A DNA stretch of 21,367 nucleotides from a virus (IMGVR_UViG_3300000553_000386:1-21367), one strand, 5' to 3'. Numbered from the stretch's first letter, positions 1-20,813 are shown. A program made the numbers and translations. The notes: generated from the letters alone by a model not told the origin.

Positions 1-931
1 CCCTACCTTCTACTTGCGTCCAATATACCCTCATCGCTTTATACGGATTTTTCATTGGATCTTCATCCGGTAACTCTGCAGCAGTCATCAACTCCCAAAA
101 CATATTATAACCATTTGGAGTTGATGTAATTATAATTCTAGAATTATCAACTGAAGATACAACTGGTACAATAGAACCATAATAATCTCTAATAAAATTA
201 TCAGGAATATGTGCAAACTCATCCAGATATAACAGATCTATCGTAAATCCAATTGATGGATCTTTTGTTCTATTTTCTGTTTGAATTCTAGAGTTGTTTT
301 CAAATGCAATTTGTGTTTCATTCCAGTTCGTAACACCTTTCTTTAAGAAAAATGGCAATAATTTATAAATATCTTTAATTTTTCTAATAATTTCTTTAAC
401 TGTTTTGCCTTTATTAGCAACAATCATAACACCTTTCTCATCATTAAATAAAACAAAATGTAAAATTACTATTGCTGCTGAAACTGTATTGTGTGATAAT
501 ATATCATTTGTATAATAACTCATTTCTGGTGTGTTTATGGATAAATCAAACATGCTTGTTTTTCCATAAACTTTTTCAACTTTCTTTACTCTACTTTGAC
601 CTTGTTTCGTTAAAATAATATCATTAATAGTTAAATCAATTAACATTTTTGTTTCATGATTTTCACAATATAGTATGTGTGTGTCAGCGCCTTCAAACCA
701 TAAACCATTTTCTAATTCCAATCTATATCGTTGAAAGGGTTGAGTTATATTTATTTCAGTTACTGGAACCATTCCATAATCGGTTTCAACTAACAATTCA
801 TTTTCAAGAAAGATAGTATTAACAAATTTCTTCATTAGGTCTTCTTCATTAGGATTAAAATTTCTAAATTCATATTTTTCTATTAATTGAATTAAGAAAT
901 AAATTATTGTTTTTATTATATTTTTTAACAT
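1..931 (-). CDS. Terminase large subunit, C-terminal half with C-intein (partial)
   Basis: This gene encodes the second half of the DNA-packaging motor ATPase (T4 gp17 type) and runs off the window at base 1. Reading from the ATG at 931, residues 1-148 are a C-intein ending DILSHN. Residue 149 (Thr) starts the extein with TVSAAIVILHF, the continuation of the P-loop. Walker B follows as DLLYLDEFAHIP, then a coupling-motif region IIITSTPNGYN. The nuclease domain lies outside the window. The reading frame upstream of the ATG is closed by stops, so this is a free-standing gene and not the result of a simple frameshift. Its partner half is at 3039-3548 on the same strand. The sequence shows that both halves are separate ORFs with matching intein borders. 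Protein trans-splicing is inferred from the intein family. Confidence 0.93.
   Translation of the reverse strand, partial: MLKNIIKTIIYFLIQLIEKYEFRNFNPNEEDLMKKFVNTIFLENELLVETDYGMVPVTEINITQPFQRYRLELENGLWFEGADTHILYCENHETKMLIDLTINDIILTKQGQSRVKKVEKVYGKTSMFDLSINTPEMSYYTNDILSHNTVSAAIVILHFVLFNDEKGVMIVANKGKTVKEIIRKIKDIYKLLPFFLKKGVTNWNETQIAFENNSRIQTENRTKDPSIGFTIDLLYLDEFAHIPDNFIRDYYGSIVPVVSSVDNSRIIITSTPNGYNMFWELMTAAELPDEDPMKNPYKAMRVYWTQVEGR
488..931 (-). other. C-intein coding segment (148 residues)
   Basis: This segment codes for the C-terminal part of a split intein. Block B is carried here (GADTHILY, His about residue 85), as are block F (MFDLSINTPEMSYYTNDIL) and block G (SHN, followed by Thr as the +1 extein residue). 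Only block A lies on the other piece. That makes it an atypical split like the short-N-fragment terminase intein known from the Ace Lake metagenome (AceL-TerL). The first 40 residues form an extra hydrophobic/charged helical stretch that could dock onto the helical tail of the N-intein. No LAGLIDADG or other endonuclease motif is visible. Confidence 0.9.
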
Positions 932-1068
932 AAAATTCGTTTTTTTAATGTGATTTTACCACAATCACAAATATACGGCAAATTTAATTTTTCATTAAAT
1001 CTAATATTCCATCTTCTTTTCTTTTACTATGTAGTTTTATATATTATATTTTTCATCTCCTAACTTTT

Positions 1069-1077
1069 TATATATAT
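1069..1077. promoter_or_regulatory. TATATATAT box between divergent genes
   Basis: TATATATAT lies 14 bases before the ATG at 1092 on the plus strand, and about 140 bases before the minus-strand ATG at 931. The same box occurs near the start of most transcription units in this window. A late-promoter role, comparable to T4 TATAAATA, is inferred. Confidence 0.4.
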
Positions 1078-1091
1078 GATAAAAAATTATT

Positions 1092-1412
1092 ATGAAACAT
1101 TTAAAGCTATTTGAAAATACAAATAAAAAATTATATGTCGTTTATGATGTTGATGATAATGATAATCCAACTGTTTATGCTTTTAATAATAAAAAAGATA
1201 GGAATAATTTTTTAATAAATCACATACATACTGATTTTTCTGAGGCCGGATTGAATGATGTTGAAGATATATTTGATATTAAGAAATTAGTTGAACTTTA
1301 CAATTTTGATGGTGATAATAAAATATATCTACATACCGCCGAATTTTTAGAAAATGTCAAATTAAAACCAGAAATAGAGACACATATGTTAGCTAACAAA
1401 TATAATTTATAA
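1092..1412 (+). CDS. Small protein with capsid-targeting-like N-terminus
   Basis: This is a 106-residue protein of unknown function. It starts MKHLKLFENTNKK, which resembles the T4 capsid-targeting peptide MKTYQEFIAE, and ends ANKYNL. The C-terminal KYNL and the N-terminal MKxLKxxEN are shared with the protein at 4259-4564, although the middles differ. The middle is acidic and Asn-rich (DVDDNDN). No membrane segment or catalytic motif is seen. It lies on the opposite strand inside the gap between the two terminase halves, with its own TATATATAT box 14 bases upstream and no Shine-Dalgarno sequence. Its 3' end overlaps the frameshifted tail of the next minus-strand gene by 6 bases. It may be head cargo, which is inference. 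Confidence 0.75.
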   Translation: MKHLKLFENTNKKLYVVYDVDDNDNPTVYAFNNKKDRNNFLINHIHTDFSEAGLNDVEDIFDIKKLVELYNFDGDNKIYLHTAEFLENVKLKPEIETHMLANKYNL

Positions 1413-1577
1413 AAATTCTTTTATTATAGACATTAATCTACTTTCCATCAAAGGAAAATTTCCTGTCCACATATTTTTTTTCTCCATATAGGGTCTTTTA
1501 TCCATAATTAATTCATCTATAATCAATTTTGATTTTTCTAAATATTCTCTTGCTAAATCATGAAATAATTTTTCCCA
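1407..1577 (-). pseudogene. Frameshifted C-terminal tail of the HExxH gene at 1553-2134
   Basis: In the -1 frame relative to the gene at 1553-2134, codons stay open for over 50 residues, from KWEKLFHDLAREY to SIIKEFL, and end in TAA at 1407. The junction is an 8-A run (1578-1585 on the coding strand). Losing one A there explains the break. A stretch this long without a stop is unlikely by chance at this base composition, so it is almost certainly the gene's original C-terminus. Joined, the protein would be about 240 residues. The break could be a real mutation, an assembly indel in the homopolymer, or a site of slippage. Confidence 0.75.
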
Positions 1578-2134
1578 TTTTTTTTAAATTCTTCTTCTAA
1601 CTGTATATCATCATATGTTGCTAACCATCTTAATCTATCATATAGCATAGTATTTCTGGCATCAATCTCATGCCTTAAAGATTCATAAACAAGTTGAATA
1701 AATTCGTCATATCTATTATTTTTAAATATTTTTTTTAATCTTAATACTGAATCAATTTGTAAAAAACTTTGTGTTTGATAATCTTCCGAATATATATCAA
1801 ATACATGCTTCAATTCATGTAATATACAAGAAAACAATTCATTATAATCTATATTAATATCAATTACTAATATATTAACAACTATGTCAACTTTTTTACC
1901 CATAGATTTTTCAATAATATTGTAGATATCAACATTACCTGAGTATGGATGTTTTTTTAATTTAGTGTATTCTATATTTAGAATAAATTCTACGAAAGAT
2001 TGATCATTAATCTTAAATATATTTTTTCCTTCTTTTATATTATCAATGATTGTATCTTTTACCTTTGACATAGTTTTTTTCAAAGGAAATTCAACAATTG
2101 ATTCATTAATAAAATTCTGCCATTTACTAATCAT
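1553..2134 (-). CDS. HExxHxxD metalloprotease-like protein (frameshifted near its end)
   Basis: A 193-residue open frame carries ILHELKHVFD at about residues 106-115. This is a zinc-metallopeptidase-type HExxH followed by Asp three residues later. The N-terminus MISKWQNFINES matches the capsid-targeting-like FINE signature seen in several genes here. The frame ends prematurely, just after the A8 run at 1578-1585, and the natural continuation is in the -1 frame down to 1407. It lies between the two halves of the terminase gene, on the same strand, next to a second HExxHxxD gene at 2150-2815. The family is not recognised, the third zinc ligand cannot be assigned, and peptidase activity is inference from the motif only. 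Confidence 0.7.
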   Translation of the reverse strand: MISKWQNFINESIVEFPLKKTMSKVKDTIIDNIKEGKNIFKINDQSFVEFILNIEYTKLKKHPYSGNVDIYNIIEKSMGKKVDIVVNILVIDINIDYNELFSCILHELKHVFDIYSEDYQTQSFLQIDSVLRLKKIFKNNRYDEFIQLVYESLRHEIDARNTMLYDRLRWLATYDDIQLEEEFKKNGKNYFMI

Positions 2135-2149
2135 AAATTAAAATAATTT

Positions 2150-2815
2150 TTACCATAATCCATATAATCTATGAATTCTATTTCTGAATTCTATACCTTT
2201 ATTATTTATAAATTTTTGTGTCTTTCTCATAATAATATCTAGACTTATATTGTTTTCTTTAGAAAAAAGATAATAAAAAATAATAAGCAATTTATGAATT
2301 AAAGGATATCTTTTAATTTTAACCATTTTTTTATTCAAATTCATAAAACCATTAAAAAAATTTATTTTTACTTTATCAGATACATTTTCTAAATCTTTAT
2401 TAATGTCGTAATTAATCATTTTTTCATATAAATTTTTAATACCACTTTCCACCAGAACATGTTCAAATATGAAATTTTTATCATATCCATCTTTTAACAT
2501 TTCTAACATTACTTCATCAATCATATTGTGCATTTGATGTGTAATGGCTTTTATCTCTCCATCATCACTCAAATATAACATATTACATAAATTGTCAAAT
2601 TCTTTTTTATTAAATAGATTTGATATTTTTGATGATATAATATTATCTCTAATTTTTTTAATTTTTAATGAAATCTTTTTTTCATGATCTATTAAATGTG
2701 ATAATTCATGATTAATTGTTGATTTTTTTAATTCTACATTTCTATTAAAAGATAATGAAATTATCATTCCATTATCTGTTAATTTAGAATATCTTTCATT
2801 AAAAAATGCAGACAC
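2150..2815 (-). CDS. HExxHxxD metalloprotease-like protein, 3' part of a frameshifted gene
   Basis: This 221-residue frame has TINHELSHLIDHE at about residues 34-46, the same HExxHxxD pattern as the neighbour at 1553-2134. The listed start is a GTG, but the frame stays open upstream into KYIPKTSFRIHKFIINFNSG, overlapping the ORF at 2836-3018 in another frame. The natural reading joins the two: ...KFEIDR, then KYIPKTSF, with one A missing in the short A-tract at 2876-2878. The restored protein would be near 290 residues and would begin with a FEDFINEK signature. The rest is Lys/Asn/Ile-rich and mostly helical in appearance. Peptidase activity is inferred from the motif alone. Confidence 0.65.
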   Translation of the reverse strand: MSAFFNERYSKLTDNGMIISLSFNRNVELKKSTINHELSHLIDHEKKISLKIKKIRDNIISSKISNLFNKKEFDNLCNMLYLSDDGEIKAITHQMHNMIDEVMLEMLKDGYDKNFIFEHVLVESGIKNLYEKMINYDINKDLENVSDKVKINFFNGFMNLNKKMVKIKRYPLIHKLLIIFYYLFSKENNISLDIIMRKTQKFINNKGIEFRNRIHRLYGLW

Positions 2816-2835
2816 ATCACCAGAATTAAAATTTA

Positions 2836-3018
2836 TTATGAATTTATGAATTCTAAAACTTGTTTTAGGTATATATTTCTATCAATCTCAAATTTAATTT
2901 TATCATGATTTTTTAATATTTCATATAAAAAATTAGATAAAATCAAAACATCATCATGTATGCCAAGTTTTTCATTAATAAAATCTTCAAAATCTAAATA
3001 TTGGTCGCATTCAGTCAA
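2836..3018 (-). CDS. 5' part of the frameshifted HExxH gene (FINE-signature N-terminus)
   Basis: A 60-codon frame carries YLDFEDFINEKLG near its start, a good match to the capsid-targeting-like signature found in other genes here. No ATG exists in this frame, and the TTG at 3018 is the most plausible start. An ATG at 3010 is in a different frame and stops after seven residues. The last residues (IYLKQVLEFINS) are probably out-of-frame translation past a one-base deletion at about 2876-2880, because the -1 frame continues smoothly into the HExxH ORF at 2150-2815. It follows the N-terminal terminase gene by about 20 bases. It is best regarded as the front of a broken gene and not as an independent small protein. 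Confidence 0.5.
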   Translation of the reverse strand: MTECDQYLDFEDFINEKLGIHDDVLILSNFLYEILKNHDKIKFEIDRNIYLKQVLEFINS

Positions 3019-3038
3019 AATGGTAAATACTTTAAATA

Positions 3039-3548
3039 TTATTGCAATTTATACAAAATATTATACAATTTAATTTTTATTTTTTCTAATAAAGTTAATT
3101 TTCTTTCCTTCTTTAATTCATTATAATAAAGCAATCCAATTGGAATAATAATTTTTTGATTATTTTCCGAAATTACTAACACATTGGTTATGAACGAGTT
3201 GCATTTTCCTGTCTGCCTACTTGCCATTAATATACTTCTAGGATTTTTTGTATATAGATCTATAATATCTTTTTGATAGTCTCGAAGTTTCATTGGTCCG
3301 ACTGATCCATCTTCTCTTTTAATTTGACAATATTTTTCAGCAAAATAATGTATATCAATTTTACATTTAACATATTCTTCAAATTCATCTTTTGTCATTG
3401 CGAACGTTAAAAAAGGTTTACGAACACCTCTAGTATTTGCGAACCAAACTTTTTCATATCGTTTAAGAATTTTTCCTAAATTTTCTCTTTGTTCAATGTC
3501 GTTTATTATATCTGTAGTTAATACAAATTCATCAATTTTTTCACCCAT
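3039..3548 (-). CDS. Terminase large subunit, N-terminal half with N-intein
   Basis: This gene encodes the first part of the packaging ATPase. Residues 1-115 are terminase: a helical N-terminus with KPFLTFAMTKDEFEEYV, then an adenine-binding-type MKLRDYQKDIIDLY, then the P-loop SILMASRQTGK ending at Lys115. Cys116 starts a 54-residue N-intein (CNSFITNVLVI is block A) that ends in a basic helical tail. The chain is cut exactly where the P-loop needs its Thr/Ser, and that residue is supplied by the other half (TVSAAIVIL at 1-931). Neither half alone would be a working ATPase. It sits downstream of the gp25-like gene, with no clear Shine-Dalgarno sequence and an AT-rich leader containing TATAAAT. 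Confidence 0.93.
   Translation of the reverse strand: MGEKIDEFVLTTDIINDIEQRENLGKILKRYEKVWFANTRGVRKPFLTFAMTKDEFEEYVKCKIDIHYFAEKYCQIKREDGSVGPMKLRDYQKDIIDLYTKNPRSILMASRQTGKCNSFITNVLVISENNQKIIIPIGLLYYNELKKERKLTLLEKIKIKLYNILYKLQ
3042..3203 (-). other. N-intein coding segment (54 residues)
   Basis: The segment starts at Cys116 of the N-terminal terminase protein. Block A is present as CNSFITNVLVI. No TxxH block B follows, and that block is found on the C-terminal piece. The second half (ELKKERKLTLLEKIKIKLY) is basic and probably helical, while the partner fragment begins with a hydrophobic helical stretch, so the tails may help the halves associate. N-fragments of naturally split terminase inteins can be this short or shorter. 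Confidence 0.88.
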
Positions 3549-3563
3549 AAAAATTTATATTTT

Positions 3564-3935
3564 TTATTCAAAAATGAACTCTATATTGTATCCTTTTATA
3601 ACAAAATTCAGATAGAGTATATCTCTTAGTGTACCTTCAAATACATTTACTGATAAAGTGTAACCTAAATCAGCAAGTTCCGTTATATAAATAGATATTT
3701 GTTCGTCCACTTTCTTTTTTAATGTCTCAGTTGTAACTCTTGTTTGCCACAAGTAATATTCTAAATTTACTCCCATATTAATGTCACCTAAAACTTCACC
3801 TTGGTTAGTAAAAAGTATCATTTCTAATTTTTGAACAATAACTTCGATTTCATCATCTTCAACTATTCTATTTACTTCATATTTTGGATGACCTGGATAT
3901 CTGATAACTAAATCTTTTATGTCTTTTAATGCCAT
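3564..3935 (-). CDS. Baseplate wedge protein, gp25-like
   Basis: This 123-residue protein belongs to the T4 gp25 / GPW-gp25 family, which forms part of the inner baseplate wedge and initiates sheath assembly. The typical central pattern is LEMILFTNQGEVLGDINMG, followed by LEYYLWQT and a VxxxxLRDIL-type C-terminal region with alternating beta strands. The length is close to T4 gp25 (132 residues). It lies between the gp6-like gene and the terminase half. Its promoter probably sits in the palindromic TATATATATA segment at 3940-3973, about 18 bases upstream. The start ATG at 3935 follows AAAGGTTTCAG, at best a weak ribosome-binding site. Confidence 0.85.
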   Translation of the reverse strand: MALKDIKDLVIRYPGHPKYEVNRIVEDDEIEVIVQKLEMILFTNQGEVLGDINMGVNLEYYLWQTRVTTETLKKKVDEQISIYITELADLGYTLSVNVFEGTLRDILYLNFVIKGYNIEFIFE

Positions 3936-3939
3936 CTGA

Positions 3940-3973
3940 AACCTTTTTTTATTATATATATAAAAAAAAGGTT
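3940..3973. promoter_or_regulatory. Palindromic divergent promoter region (AACCTTTTTT...AAAAAAGGTT)
   Basis: A near-perfect inverted repeat, AACCTTTTTTT at 3940-3950 and AAAAAAAAGGTT at 3962-3973, surrounds TATATATATA at 3953-3962. It separates the divergent genes ending at 3935 (minus start) and starting at 3980 (plus), with the box about 18 bases from both start codons. A bidirectional promoter is inferred from position. A hairpin role cannot be excluded. Confidence 0.45.
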
Positions 3974-3979
3974 ATCTAA

Positions 3980-4264
3980 ATGGAGGAAGAAAAAGAAGTT
4001 AATTTTATATCAATTATAGATTACATTGGAGAAATAAATGGTGGTGTTGCAGTTTTATTATCAATAAAAGTAAGAGATAAAATTTATCAATTGTTATATT
4101 GGTTTACCAGAGATGATAATTATATAATGTCAATTGATGAAAATTTTTTAAGAGACTACAACATTAAAAATATTTATGAGTATGAAAACTACAAAAAACT
4201 AGCATTTTATATTCATACATTTGTATTAAATAATAAAGAAGAAATATTTAAAGAATTTTTATAA
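3980..4264 (+). CDS. Hypothetical protein (94 residues)
   Basis: The function is not recognised. The protein starts MEEEKEVNFISIIDYIG, with an acidic start, a beta-rich middle (GGVAVLLSIKVRDKIYQLLYWF) and a Tyr/Asn/Lys-rich C-terminus. No signal peptide or clear membrane segment is seen. It is a lone plus-strand gene inserted in the minus-strand baseplate block, with its own TATATATATA box 18 bases upstream, and it overlaps the convergent gene at 4259-4564 by 6 bases. Its N-terminus does not match the capsid-targeting signature of the other small genes. Isolated opposite-strand genes like this are typical of cargo or moron insertions. Confidence 0.65.
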   Translation: MEEEKEVNFISIIDYIGEINGGVAVLLSIKVRDKIYQLLYWFTRDDNYIMSIDENFLRDYNIKNIYEYENYKKLAFYIHTFVLNNKEEIFKEFL

Positions 4265-4564
4265 ATTATATTTTTGTGCAGCTATAGATAATTCTACCTC
4301 TTTTACCTCTGATTTAGTAAGTTTTTTAACTATTTCATAATCAAAAAACATATATGATTCTTCTTCTTTAAGTGGATTATGAACACTTACACAAAAATGT
4401 TTTAAAAACTTAAATAATTCTGGATGTTTATCAAGAACCATCAATTTATTTTTAAAACCAATATCAGAAGAAGTTATGATAACATAATCACCTTTTTTGA
4501 GATCTTCATATTCAACAACATGCGTGTAATCGGTTGAGTTTTCGTATGTTTTTAAATATTTCAT
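4259..4564 (-). CDS. Small protein with capsid-targeting-like N-terminus
   Basis: This is a 101-residue protein of unknown function. It starts MKYLKTYENSTDYTH, close to the T4 capsid-targeting peptide (MKTYQEFIAE), and ends AAQKYNL, sharing its C-terminal KYNL with the protein at 1092-1412. The middle contains LKKGDYVIITSS, which reads like a small beta-barrel segment. It follows the gp6-like gene by a few bases, with GATAGGAA before the ATG as a possible weak ribosome-binding site. It is probably co-transcribed with the baseplate genes. Head cargo is a possibility by signature only. Confidence 0.75.
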   Translation of the reverse strand: MKYLKTYENSTDYTHVVEYEDLKKGDYVIITSSDIGFKNKLMVLDKHPELFKFLKHFCVSVHNPLKEEESYMFFDYEIVKKLTKSEVKEVELSIAAQKYNL

Positions 4565-4572
4565 TTCCTATC

Positions 4573-6540
4573 TTATTTTCTAGGTGTTACACCTTTCCAA
4601 ATTATATTAATTGTACTAAAACCATCTGTTGATCTTGGGTCTTCGTGAAAAAATACGCCATTTCTATTACTCCAACCACCTCTTAATATAACTAATTCAT
4701 TTTTTCCAATAATAATATCACCTAAAGTAGGATCAATATCTATTAATTTTTTAGAATCATATTGTGTTTCCTTATATGATACTATTGTAGTGTTTCCTAC
4801 TGAAGTTTTATCGGTATTGGTCACTGTGGTTGATTGATTTTGTGTTGGAGTGCCTAGTATAGAAAGCTTATTAACTGTGGATTGTGATTTATCTGTACTT
4901 ACTTTATTTAAAGTTTGCTGATTATTAACTGCATTGGTATAAGAATCTACTGTTACATTAACTGCTGATGTTGTAGTAGCATATGTTGATTGTAATACAT
5001 TTTTCTTTGTTGCAGATAAAATAGCTCCATCTTTATGATAATCCTCAGTAGCTTTACTAACAAATTCTAAATTAATAGAATCTATACCATCAATTCCTTT
5101 TAATTGGCTAATTAAATCAGCTTTAATAATTCTATCATACCTACTATATGTCGAAAAATAATCAGATAAAACATTTACAATTTGATCTCTAATATTTTCT
5201 TTTGTAACATCATCAAATTTTCTAATAAAAATATTTACTATAAATTTTTTAATTATGGGGTCAAGTATTTTTATTGATGATGTTATACTTACAATACCTT
5301 GTTTTTTTAAATATGTTATTATTCGTTGTTTTTCTTCAGAATCTAGATAAAAACTACTAAAAGGAACATTAAAATAATTAACATCTGTAGAAAAATAATC
5401 AGTAATTCTTGGAACTAAATTTAAGTACATCTCATTTATATTAATAGCATCTAAAGTTCCATCACTATCTATATCTATTTTAATCATATCCAACGTATTA
5501 AATGCATTAACCTTAGAAAACATATTTAATTTTTTTAAATGATAAATAAATTGTGCTGGTGTTGCAAGTACAAAATTTCTGGAAACATAAGGAATAATAG
5601 TTTTGGTATATTGAATATCTTCACCATCAGATGCAAAAATTATGTCTGTATCAACATAAACATCAAAAATTTGGTCTACTTGTATTGCATTACCATCATC
5701 GTCATATAAATCATCAACAAAACTAAAATCATTTACTTTACTATTTAAAATATTACCTTGTAAACCATTAGTCAATAGATATTTAACTTCAATTAGAGAT
5801 CCGATTGGTGGAATGATACCATTTATACTATTACCAAAATAAACATCCATTCCACCATTAAAACCAGTTCTAGTATAACATGCATATTCATTTTGAAGTA
5901 GATCAGTTAAATGATCTTTAATTGTTAAATTTATACCATTAAGTGTGATTTGATAATCAAAATTATCAATTGTTGTATTATTACTAACATTCACTTGTAT
6001 AGATTGTGTTGGATTACCATCACCTGTAAATGATTGAGTATCATATTTTCCTTGAATAATGTTTACAAAAAATTGACAGCCTGGTGTTAAGGAATATAAA
6101 TTTTTATCAGTTCCAACTTTTAATGTATAAAAAAGGCTATTGGTTTTATTTTTAAGAACTGTATCGTCATAAATAGTTACTTGCCCACCAGATACTTTAT
6201 CTGCAATACTAATTCCTTGTTTAAGTTTAAATTTAAGTGTACCTTTTGCCGATATTGCTCTTGATGGATTATGACCAGAAATTCTAGCAATATTATTTAT
6301 CATTCTTCTAGTGTTTGCTTGATCTATATCAATTTGTTTAGTATAATTTTTCAACATTAAGATATTTTGAAGAAAAAATTCTTTAACAACTTCTAATATT
6401 TGTCCATACCCTGAAGATGAATTAAAAAGTAGACCTGATTTATTATAAGCAGCACTTAACCAATTAGTTACTTGGTTAGTTAAATTTGTATAATTTAACT
6501 CTATAAAATTAAAAACTCTATTTAATTTTGTATTTGCCAT
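4573..6540 (-). CDS. Baseplate wedge protein, gp6 / baseplate-J-like
   Basis: This 655-residue protein is close in length to T4 gp6 (660). The baseplate-J-type core is at about residues 230-265: GGMDVYFGNSINGIIPP, then GSLIEVKYLLTNG and QGN. That is the family pattern of a glycine/proline-rich turn followed by a T-G-GN strand. The N-terminal 70 residues are helical (NQVTNWLSAAYN). Residues of about 515-605 form a Ser/Thr/Asn/Gln-rich low-complexity linker, then a C-terminal domain with VILRGGWSNRNGVFF. In T4, gp6 dimers link baseplate wedges into the ring. It is in a tight array with the upstream 216-residue gene (2-base spacing) and the 921-residue gene, as expected for a wedge operon. The exact equivalent is inferred from architecture. 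Confidence 0.8.
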   Translation of the reverse strand: MANTKLNRVFNFIELNYTNLTNQVTNWLSAAYNKSGLLFNSSSGYGQILEVVKEFFLQNILMLKNYTKQIDIDQANTRRMINNIARISGHNPSRAISAKGTLKFKLKQGISIADKVSGGQVTIYDDTVLKNKTNSLFYTLKVGTDKNLYSLTPGCQFFVNIIQGKYDTQSFTGDGNPTQSIQVNVSNNTTIDNFDYQITLNGINLTIKDHLTDLLQNEYACYTRTGFNGGMDVYFGNSINGIIPPIGSLIEVKYLLTNGLQGNILNSKVNDFSFVDDLYDDDGNAIQVDQIFDVYVDTDIIFASDGEDIQYTKTIIPYVSRNFVLATPAQFIYHLKKLNMFSKVNAFNTLDMIKIDIDSDGTLDAININEMYLNLVPRITDYFSTDVNYFNVPFSSFYLDSEEKQRIITYLKKQGIVSITSSIKILDPIIKKFIVNIFIRKFDDVTKENIRDQIVNVLSDYFSTYSRYDRIIKADLISQLKGIDGIDSINLEFVSKATEDYHKDGAILSATKKNVLQSTYATTTSAVNVTVDSYTNAVNNQQTLNKVSTDKSQSTVNKLSILGTPTQNQSTTVTNTDKTSVGNTTIVSYKETQYDSKKLIDIDPTLGDIIIGKNELVILRGGWSNRNGVFFHEDPRSTDGFSTINIIWKGVTPRK

Positions 6541-12343: not shown

Positions 12344-12658
12344 ATGGAAAATATTAGATTGTACGAAGATTTCGAAGATGATATTGTTGTTGAAGATGAT
12401 ATGATTACTATCCCAAAATCAACACTTGAAGGTTGGATAAACGGTTTAAAAGAAAATGAAAATTTAGAAGAAGGTGGTCATAATACTATTATCGATGATA
12501 TGGAATCTTTTTTAGATGATTATTATGATAATCAAATAGAATCATCTGATCCAGATGAGGTTGATAGGAAACTTTCTAAAGATGAAATTGAACCAGTTGA
12601 GGAATTATCATCTGATGATGAAAATCCTAACTTTATAAAAAAATTCGAAGACTCATGA
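12344..12658 (+). CDS. Acidic small protein with capsid-targeting-like N-terminus
   Basis: This 104-residue protein is very rich in Asp and Glu. It starts MENIRLYEDFEDDIVVED, whose first ten residues resemble the capsid-targeting peptide. Low-complexity acidic stretches (SSDPDEVDRKLSKDEIE) suggest an extended or partly disordered chain. Acidic small proteins of this kind occur as head-core or scaffold components in T4-like phages (for example gp67), but no specific similarity is seen. It overlaps the next gene by 4 bases (ATGA), so translation is probably coupled. Confidence 0.7.
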   Translation: MENIRLYEDFEDDIVVEDDMITIPKSTLEGWINGLKENENLEEGGHNTIIDDMESFLDDYYDNQIESSDPDEVDRKLSKDEIEPVEELSSDDENPNFIKKFEDS

Positions 12659-15496: not shown

Positions 15497-16651
15497 TTAA
15501 AAAGTTTCAGTTATAATTTTATTCAACAAATCTAATTTTTCATCATCAACAAATTGATTATTACCAATATAAAATCCATTCTCATGAATAAATTGTGCAT
15601 TTTTATAATTTTTATAATTTCCATATTGTAAAAAACAAGGTTGGTTTAATAAATTACCACCAATAATAGGTCTAAGTTCAACCTCATTTTTAATAAAAAC
15701 CTTCTCTAATTTATTTTTATCATCAATATTTTTAAAAATAAACGGAAAACAGAATGATGAAATACCCTCATTATCAATGATGTATAATTTATCTTTAATT
15801 TTTTCTATAATTTTAAGATATTTTTTATGATTTTCATTGCGAATTTTAATATATTGGTCTAAATGTTCTATTTGATGTATACCAAACAGAGCATTTAATT
15901 CTGTGTTTCTTAAATTATAACCATGTGTTATGAACAAAAAATTAAAATCAATATCTGGATACAAATCTTTATATTTTTGATGTTTTGAATTATCCAATTC
16001 TCTTGCAAGTCCATGTGACCTTTTCAAAATAAACAAATCATTCAATTCTTCATTGTTAGTACATATCATTCCACCTTCTACTGTTGTGATATGATGTCCC
16101 CAATAAAAACTAAAAGTACTAGCAATACCAAAATTACCAACTTTTTCTGAATTATACGTTGCTCCATGTGATTCACAACAATCCTCTAATAAAATCAAAT
16201 TATATTTATTTGCAATTTTTTGAATTATATCAATGTTTGCAGGTACACCAATTAAATGTGTGACTAAAATAATTCTAGTACTTGGCGTAATTAATTTTTC
16301 TAATTTTTCATAATCAAAAGACAAATCATTCAGATTAATATCAACAAAAACAGGTATCATCTTTGTTTGTATAACTGAAGTTATATTTGTTGTCCAAGTT
16401 ACTGCTGGCACCAAAACTTCTGCACCATCTTCAATATTATAAAATTCTTTTACTGCATCCAACATAACTAAATCTGCAGAACTACCTGAATTCAAATATG
16501 TTGAATATTTTATATTTTGCCATAAACTCCATAATTTTTCAAATTCTTTAACTTTTTCAAATTGTGTAAACCTTTGAGTTTTTAAAATAAATTCAGCCAG
16601 ATACTCTCTATCCTTAGTTGTTAAAACATTTTCTTGTAATCTCCACATCAT
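15497..16651 (-). CDS. ColD-like PLP-dependent 3-dehydratase (DegT family, catalytic His)
   Basis: A 384-residue DegT/DnrJ/EryC1/StrS fold enzyme. Landmarks are NSGSSADLVMLDAV (cofactor phosphate site), VPAVTWTTNI, the PLP-binding Asp157 in LLEDCCESHGA, and STFSFYWGHHITTVEGGM, where the Schiff-base Lys of aminotransferases is replaced by His186. GYNLRNTELNALFGIHQIEHL follows at about 245-265. His at this position defines the 3-dehydratases ColD and E1/DdhC. The length and the lack of a Cys cluster favour ColD, which removes the 3-OH from GDP-4-keto-6-deoxymannose. The ATGA overlap with the SDR upstream and the gmd and gmm-like genes downstream fit a GDP-sugar route. Confidence 0.88.
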   Translation of the reverse strand: MMWRLQENVLTTKDREYLAEFILKTQRFTQFEKVKEFEKLWSLWQNIKYSTYLNSGSSADLVMLDAVKEFYNIEDGAEVLVPAVTWTTNITSVIQTKMIPVFVDINLNDLSFDYEKLEKLITPSTRIILVTHLIGVPANIDIIQKIANKYNLILLEDCCESHGATYNSEKVGNFGIASTFSFYWGHHITTVEGGMICTNNEELNDLFILKRSHGLARELDNSKHQKYKDLYPDIDFNFLFITHGYNLRNTELNALFGIHQIEHLDQYIKIRNENHKKYLKIIEKIKDKLYIIDNEGISSFCFPFIFKNIDDKNKLEKVFIKNEVELRPIIGGNLLNQPCFLQYGNYKNYKNAQFIHENGFYIGNNQFVDDEKLDLLNKIITETF

Positions 16652-17649
16652 TCATTCATTATTTTCATGTACCATTTTATGGTATTTTCTATTCCTACGT
16701 TAATATCTACAAAATCCTTTTCAAATTCATCAATATATTTATTAATACTCACATTAACTATTTTAGGACTACCAGAAAGTTCATTTGTTATTTCTGGCAA
16801 AAGAACTTTTTTATTAAAATATAAACCAATTTTTTCGGCTAGTTCTAAAATACTTAAACTATAGACACCTCCAACATTATAAGTTGTCTCTTTACCATAT
16901 AAAAGAATATTCCACATCATTTCTATCACATCTGATATATAACAATAAGTTCTAATTGCTTGCCCTCTGTCTAATAATTGTATATTTTCATTTAGAATTG
17001 CTTTTTTAATTAAGGAATTTAATACTCTATCATCATCTTTTTTAACACCTGGACCAAATCCTAAACTTAATCTAGCAATTTTAATATTTTTATTAGCAAA
17101 TGAATGACAAATTGCTTCACCACATCTTTTTGATTCTATATAACAAGATCTTGAATTATTTGTATTTGTTACACCAATTTCATTTTCTGTTATTTCAGAT
17201 TTTTCTAGCCCGTTATATACCTCACTTGAACTTATAAATAAAAATTTACCATCATGTTTTAATAAATTTAATAGTTCTATTGTTGATGTTGTATTAATTT
17301 GAATAGTTTTAATTTTATTTTTTACAAATTTAGTTGGCTGACCATATCCAGACGAATGAATAATATAATCAAACTTAATTAAACTATCAAAAAATCTAGC
17401 ATCTGTAATATCATGTTGAATAATATTACATTTAAAATCGAAGAAATATTGAAAATTTTTTTCAATATCACTCTTAATCCAAAAATAAATATCTAAATTA
17501 TATTCTTTTTGTAATCTCTTTAAACAAGAAACGAAATAAATACCTAATAATCCAGAAGCACCAGTTATTAATATTGATTTATTTTTTAATGGTAACAAAT
17601 TAACTTTTGATAATATTACATCAACATCATTTTCAATTATTTCATACAT
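16648..17649 (-). CDS. Extended SDR, NDP-sugar epimerase/dehydratase/reductase
   Basis: This 333-residue protein has the NAD(P)-binding motif ILITGASGLLGIY at about residues 26-38, Ser at FISSSEVYNG (about 139-147), and the catalytic pair Tyr170/Lys174 in CYIESKRCGEA. The C-terminal half carries LLDRGQAIRTYCYISDV, the family's sugar-binding region. The closest general likeness is the UXS / dTDP-glucose dehydratase branch and not the GDP-fucose-synthase branch to which ColC belongs. In this operon it could reduce or epimerise the product of the ColD-like and transketolase steps. It overlaps the transketolase C gene by 13 bases and the ColD-like gene by 4. The exact reaction is not determined. 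Confidence 0.82.
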   Translation of the reverse strand: MYEIIENDVDVILSKVNLLPLKNKSILITGASGLLGIYFVSCLKRLQKEYNLDIYFWIKSDIEKNFQYFFDFKCNIIQHDITDARFFDSLIKFDYIIHSSGYGQPTKFVKNKIKTIQINTTSTIELLNLLKHDGKFLFISSSEVYNGLEKSEITENEIGVTNTNNSRSCYIESKRCGEAICHSFANKNIKIARLSLGFGPGVKKDDDRVLNSLIKKAILNENIQLLDRGQAIRTYCYISDVIEMMWNILLYGKETTYNVGGVYSLSILELAEKIGLYFNKKVLLPEITNELSGSPKIVNVSINKYIDEFEKDFVDINVGIENTIKWYMKIMNE

Positions 17650-18515
17650 ATTTCTTCTATTTTTTTTCTTAATGATTCAGAATCCAACCCCAAATTAATG
17701 TCGTGTTCTTCCTTATTTCCATAATTTACTAAAAACTCTTTTTTCATTCCTATATTATATAAAGAATATTTTTTACCAACTAGTGCTTTATTTACATCAT
17801 AATTTAATGATCCTTCGTAAAATTGCTCACAAATAATTATTTTTTCTGTAAAATTATCTCTTATAATCTGATAATCAAATGGTTCCAACGTTGTATAATA
17901 AAGTATATTTACGTCTAATTCTTTAGTTGCGTTAATTATTTTATCTAGCATATCACCAACACATATAATTGTAGCGTTATTGCCTTTTTTAATTAAATTT
18001 GCTTTTCCAAATTCAACATTTAAATCTTGTGTATGTTGATATTCACTTAATCTATAATATGTTGGATGATTATTATCATATGTAGAATTAAATAAAATAT
18101 CAAATTCTTTTGAATTTCCAGGTGTTATAATTTGAAAATTTGGTATGCTTTTCAATAACATCACATCAGCAGGACAATGATGTGTTGGTCCTAGTGCGGC
18201 ATAATCGTATGATGCACCGATACTTATAAAATTACCATTTAAATTTTGATAACCAAAATCAATTTTGAGTTGTTCTAATGCTCTCTCAACTATAAAAGGT
18301 GCAATTGAGTGAAAAATTGGAACAAGACCTGTTTTTGATAAACCTGACATCATACTAATAGTAGATTGCTCTAAAATTCCAATATTATAAGCTCTGTCTG
18401 GATATTTTGTAAGAGAATTTCTAAATCCAAAAACACCTATATCACCCAATAATAACATAACATTAGAATTGGATTCTAATAATTTTTCAACTGTCTTAAC
18501 TAATTGTTTTCTCAT
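17637..18515 (-). CDS. Transketolase-type ThDP enzyme, C-terminal (PYR) subunit
   Basis: This 292-residue protein carries the pyrimidine-binding domain, including RAYNIGILEQSTISMMSGLS with the conserved Glu49 that activates ThDP. The C-terminal transketolase domain follows, with VGDMLDKIINATKEL and LYYTTLEPFD. It pairs with the N-terminal subunit encoded just upstream (ATGA overlap at 18512-18515). The combined length of 541 residues is shorter than housekeeping transketolase (about 620-660), as is typical for two-subunit forms. Transketolases move a two-carbon ketol unit. Here, among deoxysugar genes, a sugar acceptor is more likely than the pentose-phosphate pathway (inference). Confidence 0.88.
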   Translation of the reverse strand: MRKQLVKTVEKLLESNSNVMLLLGDIGVFGFRNSLTKYPDRAYNIGILEQSTISMMSGLSKTGLVPIFHSIAPFIVERALEQLKIDFGYQNLNGNFISIGASYDYAALGPTHHCPADVMLLKSIPNFQIITPGNSKEFDILFNSTYDNNHPTYYRLSEYQHTQDLNVEFGKANLIKKGNNATIICVGDMLDKIINATKELDVNILYYTTLEPFDYQIIRDNFTEKIIICEQFYEGSLNYDVNKALVGKKYSLYNIGMKKEFLVNYGNKEEHDINLGLDSESLRKKIEEICMK

Positions 18516-19261
18516 AATTCGTTGATAATTTTTTTATATTCTTCGTCACTTGGAAATTTATGATGCCATTCTGGATTATTTTCCATCATTTTGATACCAT
18601 TTCCTTTAATTGTATTTGCTAGAATAAAATTTGGTTTATTTGATTTTTCATTTAATGCTACATATATTTCATTTTTATTATGTCCATCAATTTCTTGACA
18701 ATTCCAATTAAAAGATTTAAATTTGTCTATAATATTATCAATTTTTAATGCTCTATCACCAGAATGATTATAATCCATTATACAATAAAGATTATTTAAA
18801 TTGTGATGCGATGCTAAAAGTGCCGATTCCCAAATAGTTCCTTCATTTGTTTCTCCATCTCCTATAATCACATATACATTATGATTAAAATTTTGAATTT
18901 TATAACCCATTGCAACACCTACACCTTGTGGCAATCCATGACCCAATGAACCTGTTGATGCTTCAACAAAAGGAATTTTATCAGACGGATGACCACCCAA
19001 TATACTATTAAATTGACAAAAATTATTAAGATTATGATTAATTAAATCAAAGTGATTTAAAATTGCATATAATCCTAATGATGCATGACCTTTACTTAAA
19101 ATTAATCTATCTCTATCATTTAACTCAGATTTAATTGGATTTATATCTAAAATTTGATCATATAAAACATATAATATGTCCAATATTGACAAAGAACTTG
19201 CAATATGACCCTCTTTTGATATATAAGCAGCATCAACGATATCTTTTATAATTTTTTTCAT
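18512..19261 (-). CDS. Transketolase-type ThDP enzyme, N-terminal (PP) subunit
   Basis: This 249-residue protein holds the diphosphate-binding domain: DRLILSKGHASLGLYA (His59 of the transketolase active site), STGSLGHGLPQGVGVAMG, then the ThDP motif IIGDGETNEGTIWESALLAS at about 132-151 with MDYN closing the GDG...N pattern. The protein ends soon after NNPEWHHKFP, so the PYR and C-terminal domains are on the partner gene. Both subunits appear complete with intact cofactor residues. The gene starts 2 bases after the stop of the GT10 gene. No pentose-phosphate genes are nearby. Confidence 0.9.
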   Translation of the reverse strand: MKKIIKDIVDAAYISKEGHIASSLSILDILYVLYDQILDINPIKSELNDRDRLILSKGHASLGLYAILNHFDLINHNLNNFCQFNSILGGHPSDKIPFVEASTGSLGHGLPQGVGVAMGYKIQNFNHNVYVIIGDGETNEGTIWESALLASHHNLNNLYCIMDYNHSGDRALKIDNIIDKFKSFNWNCQEIDGHNKNEIYVALNEKSNKPNFILANTIKGNGIKMMENNPEWHHKFPSDEEYKKIINEL

Positions 19262-19262
19262 C

Positions 19263-20231
19263 TTATCCTATTATTTTTTTCAAAAATTCAGCAATTTCAT
19301 CAAATTTCAATACATCTAAATTCAAAAAAGTAGGTTGATTTAAATATTCTAAATATAAATCATCATCATTATCCAATTCTATTATTTTATTTACAAAACT
19401 TTCATCAGATTCAAAATTGTGCCAGTTAAGAAAACTTTTTTCATTAAAATAATCAGTTATTTTATCATTTCCGTAATATAGTGGTATAGTATTCGAAATA
19501 TAAGAATCCATTATTTTTTCACAAATAAAACCGGGATAAAAATGATGCTCTGGTAATAGTTCTTTTACAAAATGATTTTGCATAGCAAAAGAAAATTTAT
19601 AATTATTGAATAAATTTATCTTATCTTCTGATATAAATTCTGAAATTAAATGACTTACGTCTTGTTTAGTGTCTATTTGTTTATGATTTTTTAACTTATT
19701 ATAAATTTGATTTCTTCTAAATGGTTGATTATTATAAAGATATATACAAAATTTTTTATTTTTAATATCTTTTTTTGTAAAATTCTTATATTGAGTAAAA
19801 TATTCCAAGGATGGAATCAATTTAGTTATAAAAACATGATGATATAACCAAAACAAAAAACATGGTACATAATAATTTTTTGGTGAATCTATTTTAAATG
19901 AAGTTAAGATATAATCAGCATTTATTAAACATTGATATTGACGAATACCAGAAATCCAAGTTGTGGCTGGTTTATATATAGATATATCATCTGGATGATA
20001 TGGATTTGGTTCATTTGTACAAAAAATCTTAATGCTATTTTTATAGTTTAATACATTATTAAATGAAGCTTCATAATCAGGCAAATCATAAAAAACAACA
20101 TCAGGATTTATTGAATCTATGATAACATTATAATTTTTACTCAATAAATATGTATATAAATTATTAGTATTATTGCCAGGCAAAAACCTTCCAGTCCACC
20201 AATTTGAAAAAAATACCCTTAAATCCCTCAT
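19263..20231 (-). CDS. Glycosyltransferase family 10 (fucosyltransferase-like)
   Basis: This 322-residue protein has the GT10 C-terminal donor domain: KFCIYLYNNQPFRRNQIYNK at about 160-179, NNYKFSFAMQN, then GFICEKIMDSYISNTIPLYY at 234-253 with Glu238/Lys239, and KITDYFNEKSFLNW. Known members transfer fucose from GDP-fucose. A GDP-linked 6-deoxy or 3,6-dideoxy sugar made by this operon would fit the same type of donor. No signal peptide or membrane helix is seen, so it should act in the cytoplasm. The neighbours are a methyltransferase gene 3 bases upstream and the transketolase N gene downstream. The acceptor is unknown. Confidence 0.88.
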   Translation of the reverse strand: MRDLRVFFSNWWTGRFLPGNNTNNLYTYLLSKNYNVIIDSINPDVVFYDLPDYEASFNNVLNYKNSIKIFCTNEPNPYHPDDISIYKPATTWISGIRQYQCLINADYILTSFKIDSPKNYYVPCFLFWLYHHVFITKLIPSLEYFTQYKNFTKKDIKNKKFCIYLYNNQPFRRNQIYNKLKNHKQIDTKQDVSHLISEFISEDKINLFNNYKFSFAMQNHFVKELLPEHHFYPGFICEKIMDSYISNTIPLYYGNDKITDYFNEKSFLNWHNFESDESFVNKIIELDNDDDLYLEYLNQPTFLNLDVLKFDEIAEFLKKIIG

Positions 20232-20234
20232 ATT

Positions 20235-20813
20235 CTATCTTTTTTCATAAAGCCAACTACTATCTATAAATGTCATATCAGGATCTCTGTCAAAACACTC
20301 AGATAATGCTCTTTGTACAGAGGGCCAACCATAATCATGACCAGAAATAATACCTCCTGTTTTTATTTTCGGCATCCATGCTAATATGTCTTCTTTTACT
20401 GAAGAATATTGATGGTTACCATCTATATAGACAAAATCAATAGAATTGTTTTCTAATTGCTCACAAAAATCTAAACTATAAATTTTATTTTTCTTTACAT
20501 TTGAAAAATTTTTAATTCTTTCAGTAAATTTTAATTCTGCTTCTTCTAATTCTAATTGCTGAGATTCTAATGTATAATTTAAAGTACCATCACCATTAAC
20601 ATCCTCAATATATTGATGCCATATATCTACAGCATTAATTTCACTATTTAGAAAAGTTTTAGCAATTATTTCTGTTGATTCACCCTGATAAGAACCAATC
20701 TCTATTATTTTTAAATTGTCACCCAACTTATTTTTAACGAATTTGTTTAATTCATTTAATCCATCATAAAGACTATTTCCTGGACCACCTCTCATATTTA
20801 TAAGTCTGCTCAT
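20235..20813 (-). CDS. Class I SAM-dependent methyltransferase
   Basis: This 192-residue methyltransferase has the SAM-binding motif IIEIGSYQGEST at residues 36-47, the acidic strand-end INAVDIWHQ, then SIDFVYIDGNHQYSSVKED at about 124-142 and TGGIISGHDYGWPSV. This is the Methyltransf_24-type layout common in surface-sugar clusters. It overlaps the upstream glycosyltransferase by ATGA. It probably O-methylates a sugar or a small precursor. The target cannot be told from sequence. Confidence 0.85.
   Translation of the reverse strand: MSRLINMRGGPGNSLYDGLNELNKFVKNKLGDNLKIIEIGSYQGESTEIIAKTFLNSEINAVDIWHQYIEDVNGDGTLNYTLESQQLELEEAELKFTERIKNFSNVKKNKIYSLDFCEQLENNSIDFVYIDGNHQYSSVKEDILAWMPKIKTGGIISGHDYGWPSVQRALSECFDRDPDMTFIDSSWLYEKR

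What the first reader, a model, noticed from the sequence alone, without database searches (positions are those of the whole stretch)
1..3548. Terminase gene fractured at the Walker A lysine by an atypical split intein
The N-half ends ASRQTGK, then the N-intein starting with Cys. The C-half has a C-intein ending SHN, then TVSAAIVIL. Joining the exteins rebuilds a perfect P-loop (QTGKTVSAA). The N-intein is only 54 residues and holds block A alone; block B is on the C-piece. Short-N split inteins in terminase are known (AceL-TerL) and fractured genes with split inteins are known in metagenomic phages, but the pairing here, with about 2.1 kb of other genes in between, appears to be a new member. 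Packaging ATPase activity would depend wholly on trans-splicing.
Basis: partly seen in the sequence, partly recalled or inferred. Interest (0 to 1): 0.85.

Follow-up and report, generated by a model that had tools for sequence, protein, structure and literature searches.

The report
Phage packaging motor gene split by intein
This phage's DNA-packaging motor gene is broken in two inside its ATP-binding site, and the two proteins carry matching halves of a self-splicing element that should rejoin them; this is a real and widespread arrangement in large phages, with an unusual design, but not a new principle.

Summary
On the minus strand, 3548-3039 encodes a 115-aa terminase (TerL) N-extein ending ASRQTGK plus a 54-aa N-intein. 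931-2 encodes a 148-aa C-intein ending SHN plus TVSAAIVIL (cut by the contig end). 2,107 bp of other sequence separates them.

It is not chance. I recovered 63 distinct split pairs at the same K|T bond: Cys1 60/60, terminal Asn 79/80, His-Asn 76/80. Both intein halves are under purifying selection. Near relatives, up to 95% identical in the C-extein, have an uninterrupted RQTGKTVSAA. A model of the closest read-through relative folds as an intein (Foldseek E about 1e-7).

Best reading: a natural class-1 split intein whose trans-splicing makes TerL. It descends from a fractured-gene element: 37/63 relatives keep a homing endonuclease (HEN) between the halves, and a strain identical over window 1-1417 still has the HEN's last 75 codons. 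The window lineage lost it.

Unusual: every pair has helical extensions at the break, so IntN is 54 aa (known atypical: 15-37). In the 735-kb megaphage the halves lie 12.4 kb apart. In cultured Vibrio phage vB_VmeM-32 a same-site split lies about 79 kb apart on opposite strands. Splicing itself is inferred.

The parts
3204..3548 (-). TerL N-extein, 115 aa, ends ...ASRQTGK
   Evidence: ORF; phrog_5989 TerL 2e-19; aligned to uninterrupted TerL of relatives
3042..3203 (-). N-intein, 54 aa, Cys1 (stop codon at 3039-3041)
   Evidence: Cys1 in 60/60 distinct N-inteins; median dN/dS 0.24
3042..3098 (-). helical extension at C-end of N-intein (LTLLEKIKIKLYNILYKLQ)
   Evidence: conserved in all pairs; helix 53-70 in the model of relative L053
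932..3038 (.). 2,107-bp gap between the halves; no homing endonuclease detected
   Evidence: a strain with identical C-half (L004) has a HEN C-terminus here
2836..3018 (-). 60-aa ORF (TTG start), probably the 5' part of the gene at 2815-2150, now out of frame
2150..2815 (-). 221-aa ORF with HELSH (HExxH) motif, metallopeptidase-like
   Evidence: weak Peptidase_M78 hit E 0.079
1553..2134 (-). 193-aa ORF with HELKH motif, metallopeptidase-like
   Evidence: no family
1092..1412 (+). 106-aa ORF starting MKHLKLFE, unknown
   Evidence: no convincing family
488..931 (-). C-intein, 148 aa, ends ILSHN
   Evidence: terminal Asn 79/80, penultimate His 76/80; profile hits gp41-1 1.1e-8, CatC 3.3e-7, VidaL 4.7e-6; median dN/dS 0.12
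860..931 (-). helical extension at N-end of C-intein (MLKNIIKTIIYFLIQLIEKYEFRN)
   Evidence: conserved; helix 83-107 in the model
2..487 (-). TerL C-extein (start), TVSAAIVIL..., cut by contig end
   Evidence: Terminase_6N 2.1e-9, phrog_36964 1.3e-28

Best explanation
A natural class-1 split intein sits between the Walker A lysine and threonine of a T4-type large terminase. The N-half and C-half are made as two proteins. The intein pieces associate and complete one Hint fold, probably helped by the helices at the break. Cys1 attacks, the P-loop Thr takes over as +1 nucleophile, the terminal Asn cyclises, and the exteins join as ...ASRQTGKTVSAAIVIL..., giving a complete packaging ATPase-nuclease. 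The locus descends from a fractured-gene mobile element: split intein plus a free-standing homing endonuclease between the halves. In the window lineage the endonuclease is gone and other ORFs occupy the gap. Shown: sequence anatomy, conservation, empty sites, selection, predicted Hint fold, HEN in sister strains. Inferred: splicing activity, docking role of the helices, dependence of packaging on splicing.
For: Exact anatomy. Uninterrupted TerL at the same bond in close relatives, e.g. L062/L030, C-extein 95% identical. 63 distinct split pairs with Cys1 60/60, Asn 79/80, His 76/80, +1 Thr/Ser/Cys 80/80. dN/dS medians: N-intein 0.24, C-intein 0.12, where dS could be estimated. C-intein profile hits solved inteins. 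AF2 model of an in-frame relative, L053 read through four TAA codons: pLDDT 81.5, pTM 0.76; the 50 listed PDB fold hits are inteins or intein-like (Hint) domains. 37/63 loci have a full-length HEN between the halves; L004, identical over window 1-1417, keeps the HEN's last 75 codons. Patchy distribution on the TerL tree: at least 10 gains/losses forced by well-supported branches, with sister pairs differing in state. No Rfam intron.
Against: No splicing measured. Block B has Ala in place of the usual Thr/Ser (ADTH; Ala-Asp-x-His is invariant in the family). A few members lack the penultimate His (LN in LR756501, L146, L152) or end in SQ (LR756500), so some could be slow or inactive. The window genome is a fragment, so an intact second TerL cannot be excluded for it. 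The structure model is of a relative (about 79% identical over the C-intein), not of the window pair.
Confidence: 0.88

Rival explanations
1. The halves act as two non-covalently associated subunits without splicing; the intein pieces are only a docking device.
For: The added helices could hold the halves together; split enzymes that work without splicing exist (a ribonucleotide reductase broken by a homing endonuclease, mentioned in PMC10448857). A few members have altered splice residues.
Against: Cys1, His-Asn and +1 Thr are near invariant although only splicing needs them. An unspliced break between P-loop K and T, with 54 and 148 foreign residues on the new ends, should destroy the ATP site.
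Confidence: 0.06
2. The gene is broken by an intron (group I/II) or by trans-splicing of RNA rather than by an intein; group I introns do split terL in Jug huge phages (PMC12363816).
For: terL introns are known in large phages (PMC12363816; ICP1, PMC10448857).
Against: No Rfam match in 1-6000 at E<=0.1. Both fragments carry conserved translated intein sequence under purifying selection. Contiguous in-frame versions exist at the same site (L175, L194, L212).
Confidence: 0.02
3. The split copy is a decaying remnant and packaging uses another intact terminase.
For: The window genome is incomplete. Large relatives have a second TerL-like gene (L125, L131, L132).
Against: dN/dS well below 1 in all four segments. 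The second TerL-like genes lack the P-loop lysine (SRQMGIT, SRQMGIS). The spliced sequence keeps Walker A, Walker B (LLYLDEF), STPNG and nuclease motifs in L078.
Confidence: 0.03
4. Assembly or sequencing artefact.
For: Metagenomic contig.
Against: Identical in an independent contig over 9.5 kb; the same arrangement in dozens of other contigs.
Confidence: 0.01

Closest known systems
Fractured genes with split inteins (Dassa et al. 2009, cited in PMC10448857 and PMC6892783; text not held, so its content here is from general knowledge)
   Same: Conserved phage gene broken in two by a split intein; in most relatives an endonuclease gene lies between the halves, with a VSR/EDxHD-like core (invariant IxE..G..H, weak DUF559/MTES_1575 and ROS_MUCR zinc-finger hits).
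   Different: Window itself lacks the endonuclease; break is near the intein N-terminus; helical extensions flank the break; host gene site is the TerL P-loop.
AceL-TerL / GOS-TerL atypical split inteins (PMC11766414, PMC13014065, PMC10189870)
   Same: TerL host; short N-intein with block A only, long C-intein with blocks B, F and G; C-intein related to the engineered consensus CatC.
   Different: IntN 54 aa (known 15-37); +1 Thr at the Walker A K|T bond (GOS-TerL is Ser1/Cys+1); extra helices at both new ends.
Contiguous TerL inteins of Ackermannviridae (Dickeya phage LIMEstone1, Vibrio phage BX-1)
   Same: Same insertion bond (RQSGK|C...SHN|TTVV).
   Different: One polypeptide; no helical pair.
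Split TerL of cultured Vibrio phage vB_VmeM-32 (KU160494)
   Same: Same K|T site, two genes.
   Different: 34-aa IntN and C-intein without helices; halves about 79 kb apart on opposite strands; a second, contiguous intein at Walker B.
Split PolB intein of jumbo phage MIJ3 (PMC6892783)
   Same: Split intein with an endonuclease ORF between the halves in a jumbo phage.
   Different: PolB host; conventional split (block B on the N-piece); HNH endonuclease.

Membership tests
Class-1 (cis/trans-splicing) intein | Cys/Ser at position 1 | tested here: met
   Cys1; 60/60 in family
Class-1 (cis/trans-splicing) intein | Terminal Asn/Gln with penultimate His, and Cys/Ser/Thr at +1 | tested here: met
   SHN|T in the window; family 79/80 Asn, 76/80 His, 80/80 T/S/C
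Class-1 (cis/trans-splicing) intein | Block B TxxH | tested here: inconclusive
   His kept, Thr replaced: ADTH; A-D-x-H invariant in the family
Class-1 (cis/trans-splicing) intein | Hint fold | tested here: met
   AF2 model of relative L053 (N- and C-pieces joined by reading TAA as Gly); Foldseek top hits VidaL 1.2e-7, gp41-1 1.4e-7
Class-1 (cis/trans-splicing) intein | Splicing activity | not testable with these tools
   needs co-expression or mass spectrometry
Natural split intein | Two separate ORFs with complementary pieces and extein halves of one protein | tested here: met
   intact TerL in relatives
Fractured gene (Dassa 2009) | Free-standing endonuclease gene between the halves | tested here: not met
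   No HEN in window 932-3038; present in 37/63 relatives, and a HEN C-terminus in near-identical strain L004, so the window is a derived endonuclease-less relative
AceL/GOS-TerL atypical split intein | IntN of 15-37 aa | tested here: not met
   54 aa; most of the family 53-56
AceL/GOS-TerL atypical split intein | Same TerL insertion site / Cys+1 (GOS-TerL) | tested here: not met
   +1 is Thr of Walker A; GOS-TerL Cys+1 from PMC10189870; AceL site itself not checked against sequence
AceL/GOS-TerL atypical split intein | Block A alone on the N-piece, block B and the rest on the C-piece | tested here: met

The most novel reading that the evidence does not exclude
The paired helices at the break are a dedicated docking module that makes this TerL split intein efficient and permanent. 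The fractured state could then outlive the homing endonuclease, take in unrelated genes, and let the two halves of an essential packaging gene drift to distant places in the genome, while splicing in trans may set when the motor becomes active.
Probability: 0.25. Interest if true: 0.8.

Novelty: new variant of a known kind. Interest (0 to 1): 0.62.

Why it matters
It shows that split-intein fracture of an essential packaging gene is common in huge phages, including the 735-kb phage whose terminase would otherwise look broken, and affects annotation of terL as a marker gene. The series HEN-full, HEN-remnant, HEN-less, fused, empty gives a natural test of the homing cycle for split inteins. The helical extension offers a possible new association module for protein ligation tools. 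vB_VmeM-32 is a cultured phage in which trans-splicing of a terminase can be tested directly.

Tried and rejected
Single-sequence PDB search with the C-intein found nothing; the profile did. PDB search with a HEN sequence or profile gave no firm hit, so the EDxHD/VSR assignment of the HEN rests on motifs and weak Pfam hits. Joint alignments of N-pieces with contiguous inteins were misaligned by MAFFT and not used for folding; A6 and A8 were. A search for contiguous forms found few. Gap ORFs of the window have no homologue in the other fetched loci apart from its own near-identical strains, so cargo shared with relatives was rejected. The single-sequence helix amphipathicity test was weak (shuffle p 0.11 and 0.03) and is not relied on. 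Intron rejected. Dassa 2009 and Stevens 2018 texts are not held.

Full report
Observation. On the minus strand of the window the N-half ORF (3548-3039) is 115 aa of large-terminase N-extein ending ASRQTGK followed by 54 aa beginning with Cys. The C-half ORF (931-2, cut by the contig end) is 148 aa ending SHN followed by TVSAAIVIL. Both halves match terminase families (phrog_5989 2e-19; phrog_36964 1e-28; Terminase_6N 2e-9). The 2,107 bp between them hold two HExxH ORFs, a short ORF and a reverse ORF. The window is a complete virus record of 21,367 bp. A second contig, identical over 9,548 bp, contains the whole 727-aa C-half.

Related loci. tblastn and IMG/VR scans returned many loci with the same pair of pieces. 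After removing identical copies there are 63 distinct split pairs and 4 contiguous inteins in the fetched set. Close relatives of the window carry an uninterrupted RQTGKTVSAA at the same bond (L030/L062, L031, L034), so joining the window's exteins restores a known intact protein. On a TerL tree, presence and absence interleave: well-supported branches force at least 10 changes, and sister pairs differ, e.g. L016 with intein and L111 without. Two close groups (L028/L065/L066 and L097) have instead a different, contiguous LAGLIDADG-type intein at the same bond.

Function of the intein. Cys1 is present in 60/60 N-pieces; the C-piece ends in Asn in 79/80 and in His-Asn in 76/80; +1 is Thr 75, Ser 3, Cys 2. 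Pairwise dN/dS medians are 0.24 (N-intein), 0.12 (C-intein), 0.11 (N-extein) and 0.05 (C-extein), with dS near 1 and saturated in some N-intein pairs. The C-intein profile finds gp41-1 (1e-8), CatC (3e-7), VidaL (5e-6) and NrdJ-1 (2e-4) in the PDB.

Structure. In locus L053 the two ORFs are in the same frame only 42 bp apart, so reading its TAA codons as Gly gives one chain of N-piece, 14-residue linker and C-piece. The AF2 model has pLDDT 81.5 and pTM 0.76; the 50 fold matches listed are inteins or intein-like (Hint) domains. It shows helices at 53-70 and 83-107 on either side of a low-confidence linker (71-82) that coincides with the natural break. In the naturally contiguous L194 the same region is modelled as one long helix with moderate confidence (52-83; pLDDT 76, pTM 0.68). 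The helices therefore lie at the split point and are found in all split pairs of this lineage that I aligned. Their docking role is inferred.

Origin. In 37 of 63 pairs the gap holds a full-length endonuclease of about 300-420 aa with an N-terminal zinc-finger-like segment and an invariant IxE..G..H core. 15 have remnants or other endonuclease-like ORFs. 9 have short gaps (-4 to 149 bp). 2 have a large gap with no endonuclease, one of them the window. Strain L004 is identical to window 1-1417 and carries the endonuclease's last 75 codons just upstream, followed by 24 residues of the window's 60-aa ORF, but lacks the HExxH ORFs. The simplest history is an ancestor with endonuclease plus extra ORFs, from which the window lineage lost the endonuclease and L004 lost the ORFs.

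Distance between halves. In the 735,411-bp phage LR756501 the halves are on one strand 12.4 kb apart (610570-611493 and 623871-624356), and the C-piece ends NLN. In the 462-kb LR756500 the endonuclease lies between the halves and the intein ends SSQ. Cultured Vibrio phage vB_VmeM-32 has a split at the same bond with its halves at 79947-80624 (-) and 1102-3216 (+); its paper does not mention inteins. Its pieces lack the helices, so it shares the site and mechanism but not this helical form.

Essentiality. In the large relatives searched, the only other TerL-like genes have a degenerate P-loop (SRQMGIT, SRQMGIS or none), so the split gene is the plausible packaging motor. This cannot be checked for the window, whose genome is a fragment.

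Verdict. A real, probably active split intein in a fractured terL gene; a new variant of a known kind. The principle (fractured genes, atypical TerL split inteins) is established. The helical extensions, the P-loop K|T site with a 54-aa IntN, the endonuclease-loss series and the separation of the halves are what a specialist would find new; I found no description of them in the held literature. That library lacks most subscription papers and the key 2009 paper.

Noticed in passing
KU160494.1 (Vibrio phage vB_VmeM-32) 1102-3216 (+) and 79947-80624 (-); loci L119, L124, L244: TerL split at the same K|T bond with halves about 79 kb apart on opposite strands, plus a second contiguous intein at Walker B (DE|C...SHN|CAFIENF); its paper does not mention inteins.
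   Followed up: partly
LR756501.1 610570-611493 and 623871-624356 (loci L115, L121): 735-kb megaphage: fractured terL with halves 12.4 kb apart; C-intein ends NLN instead of SHN.
   Followed up: partly
L125 715-1887 (-), L131 1435-2334 (+), L132 1039-1776 (-): Second TerL-like genes (245-390 aa) in huge phages with a degenerate P-loop; possible pseudo-ATPase paralogues.
   Followed up: no
L065 6346-7377, L028, L066, L097: A different contiguous LAGLIDADG intein (starts AQDLDSVVW) at the same P-loop bond in close relatives of the window.
   Followed up: partly
L004 1-320 versus window 1417-3001: Near-identical strains differ in gap content: endonuclease tail in L004, HExxH ORFs in the window.
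   Followed up: yes
window 3018-2836 and 2815-2150: The two ORFs look like one HExxH peptidase gene broken by a frameshift near 2830.
   Followed up: partly
window 1092-1412, 4259-4564, 12344-12658, 1553-2134: Several small ORFs begin with similar N termini (K-x-LK-x-FE or FINE), perhaps a shared targeting or processing signal.
   Followed up: no
window 15497-20813: Cluster of sugar-metabolism genes: aminotransferase, nucleotide-sugar epimerase, two ORFs resembling N- and C-terminal halves of transketolase (own reading, no PHROG support), methyltransferase.
   Followed up: no
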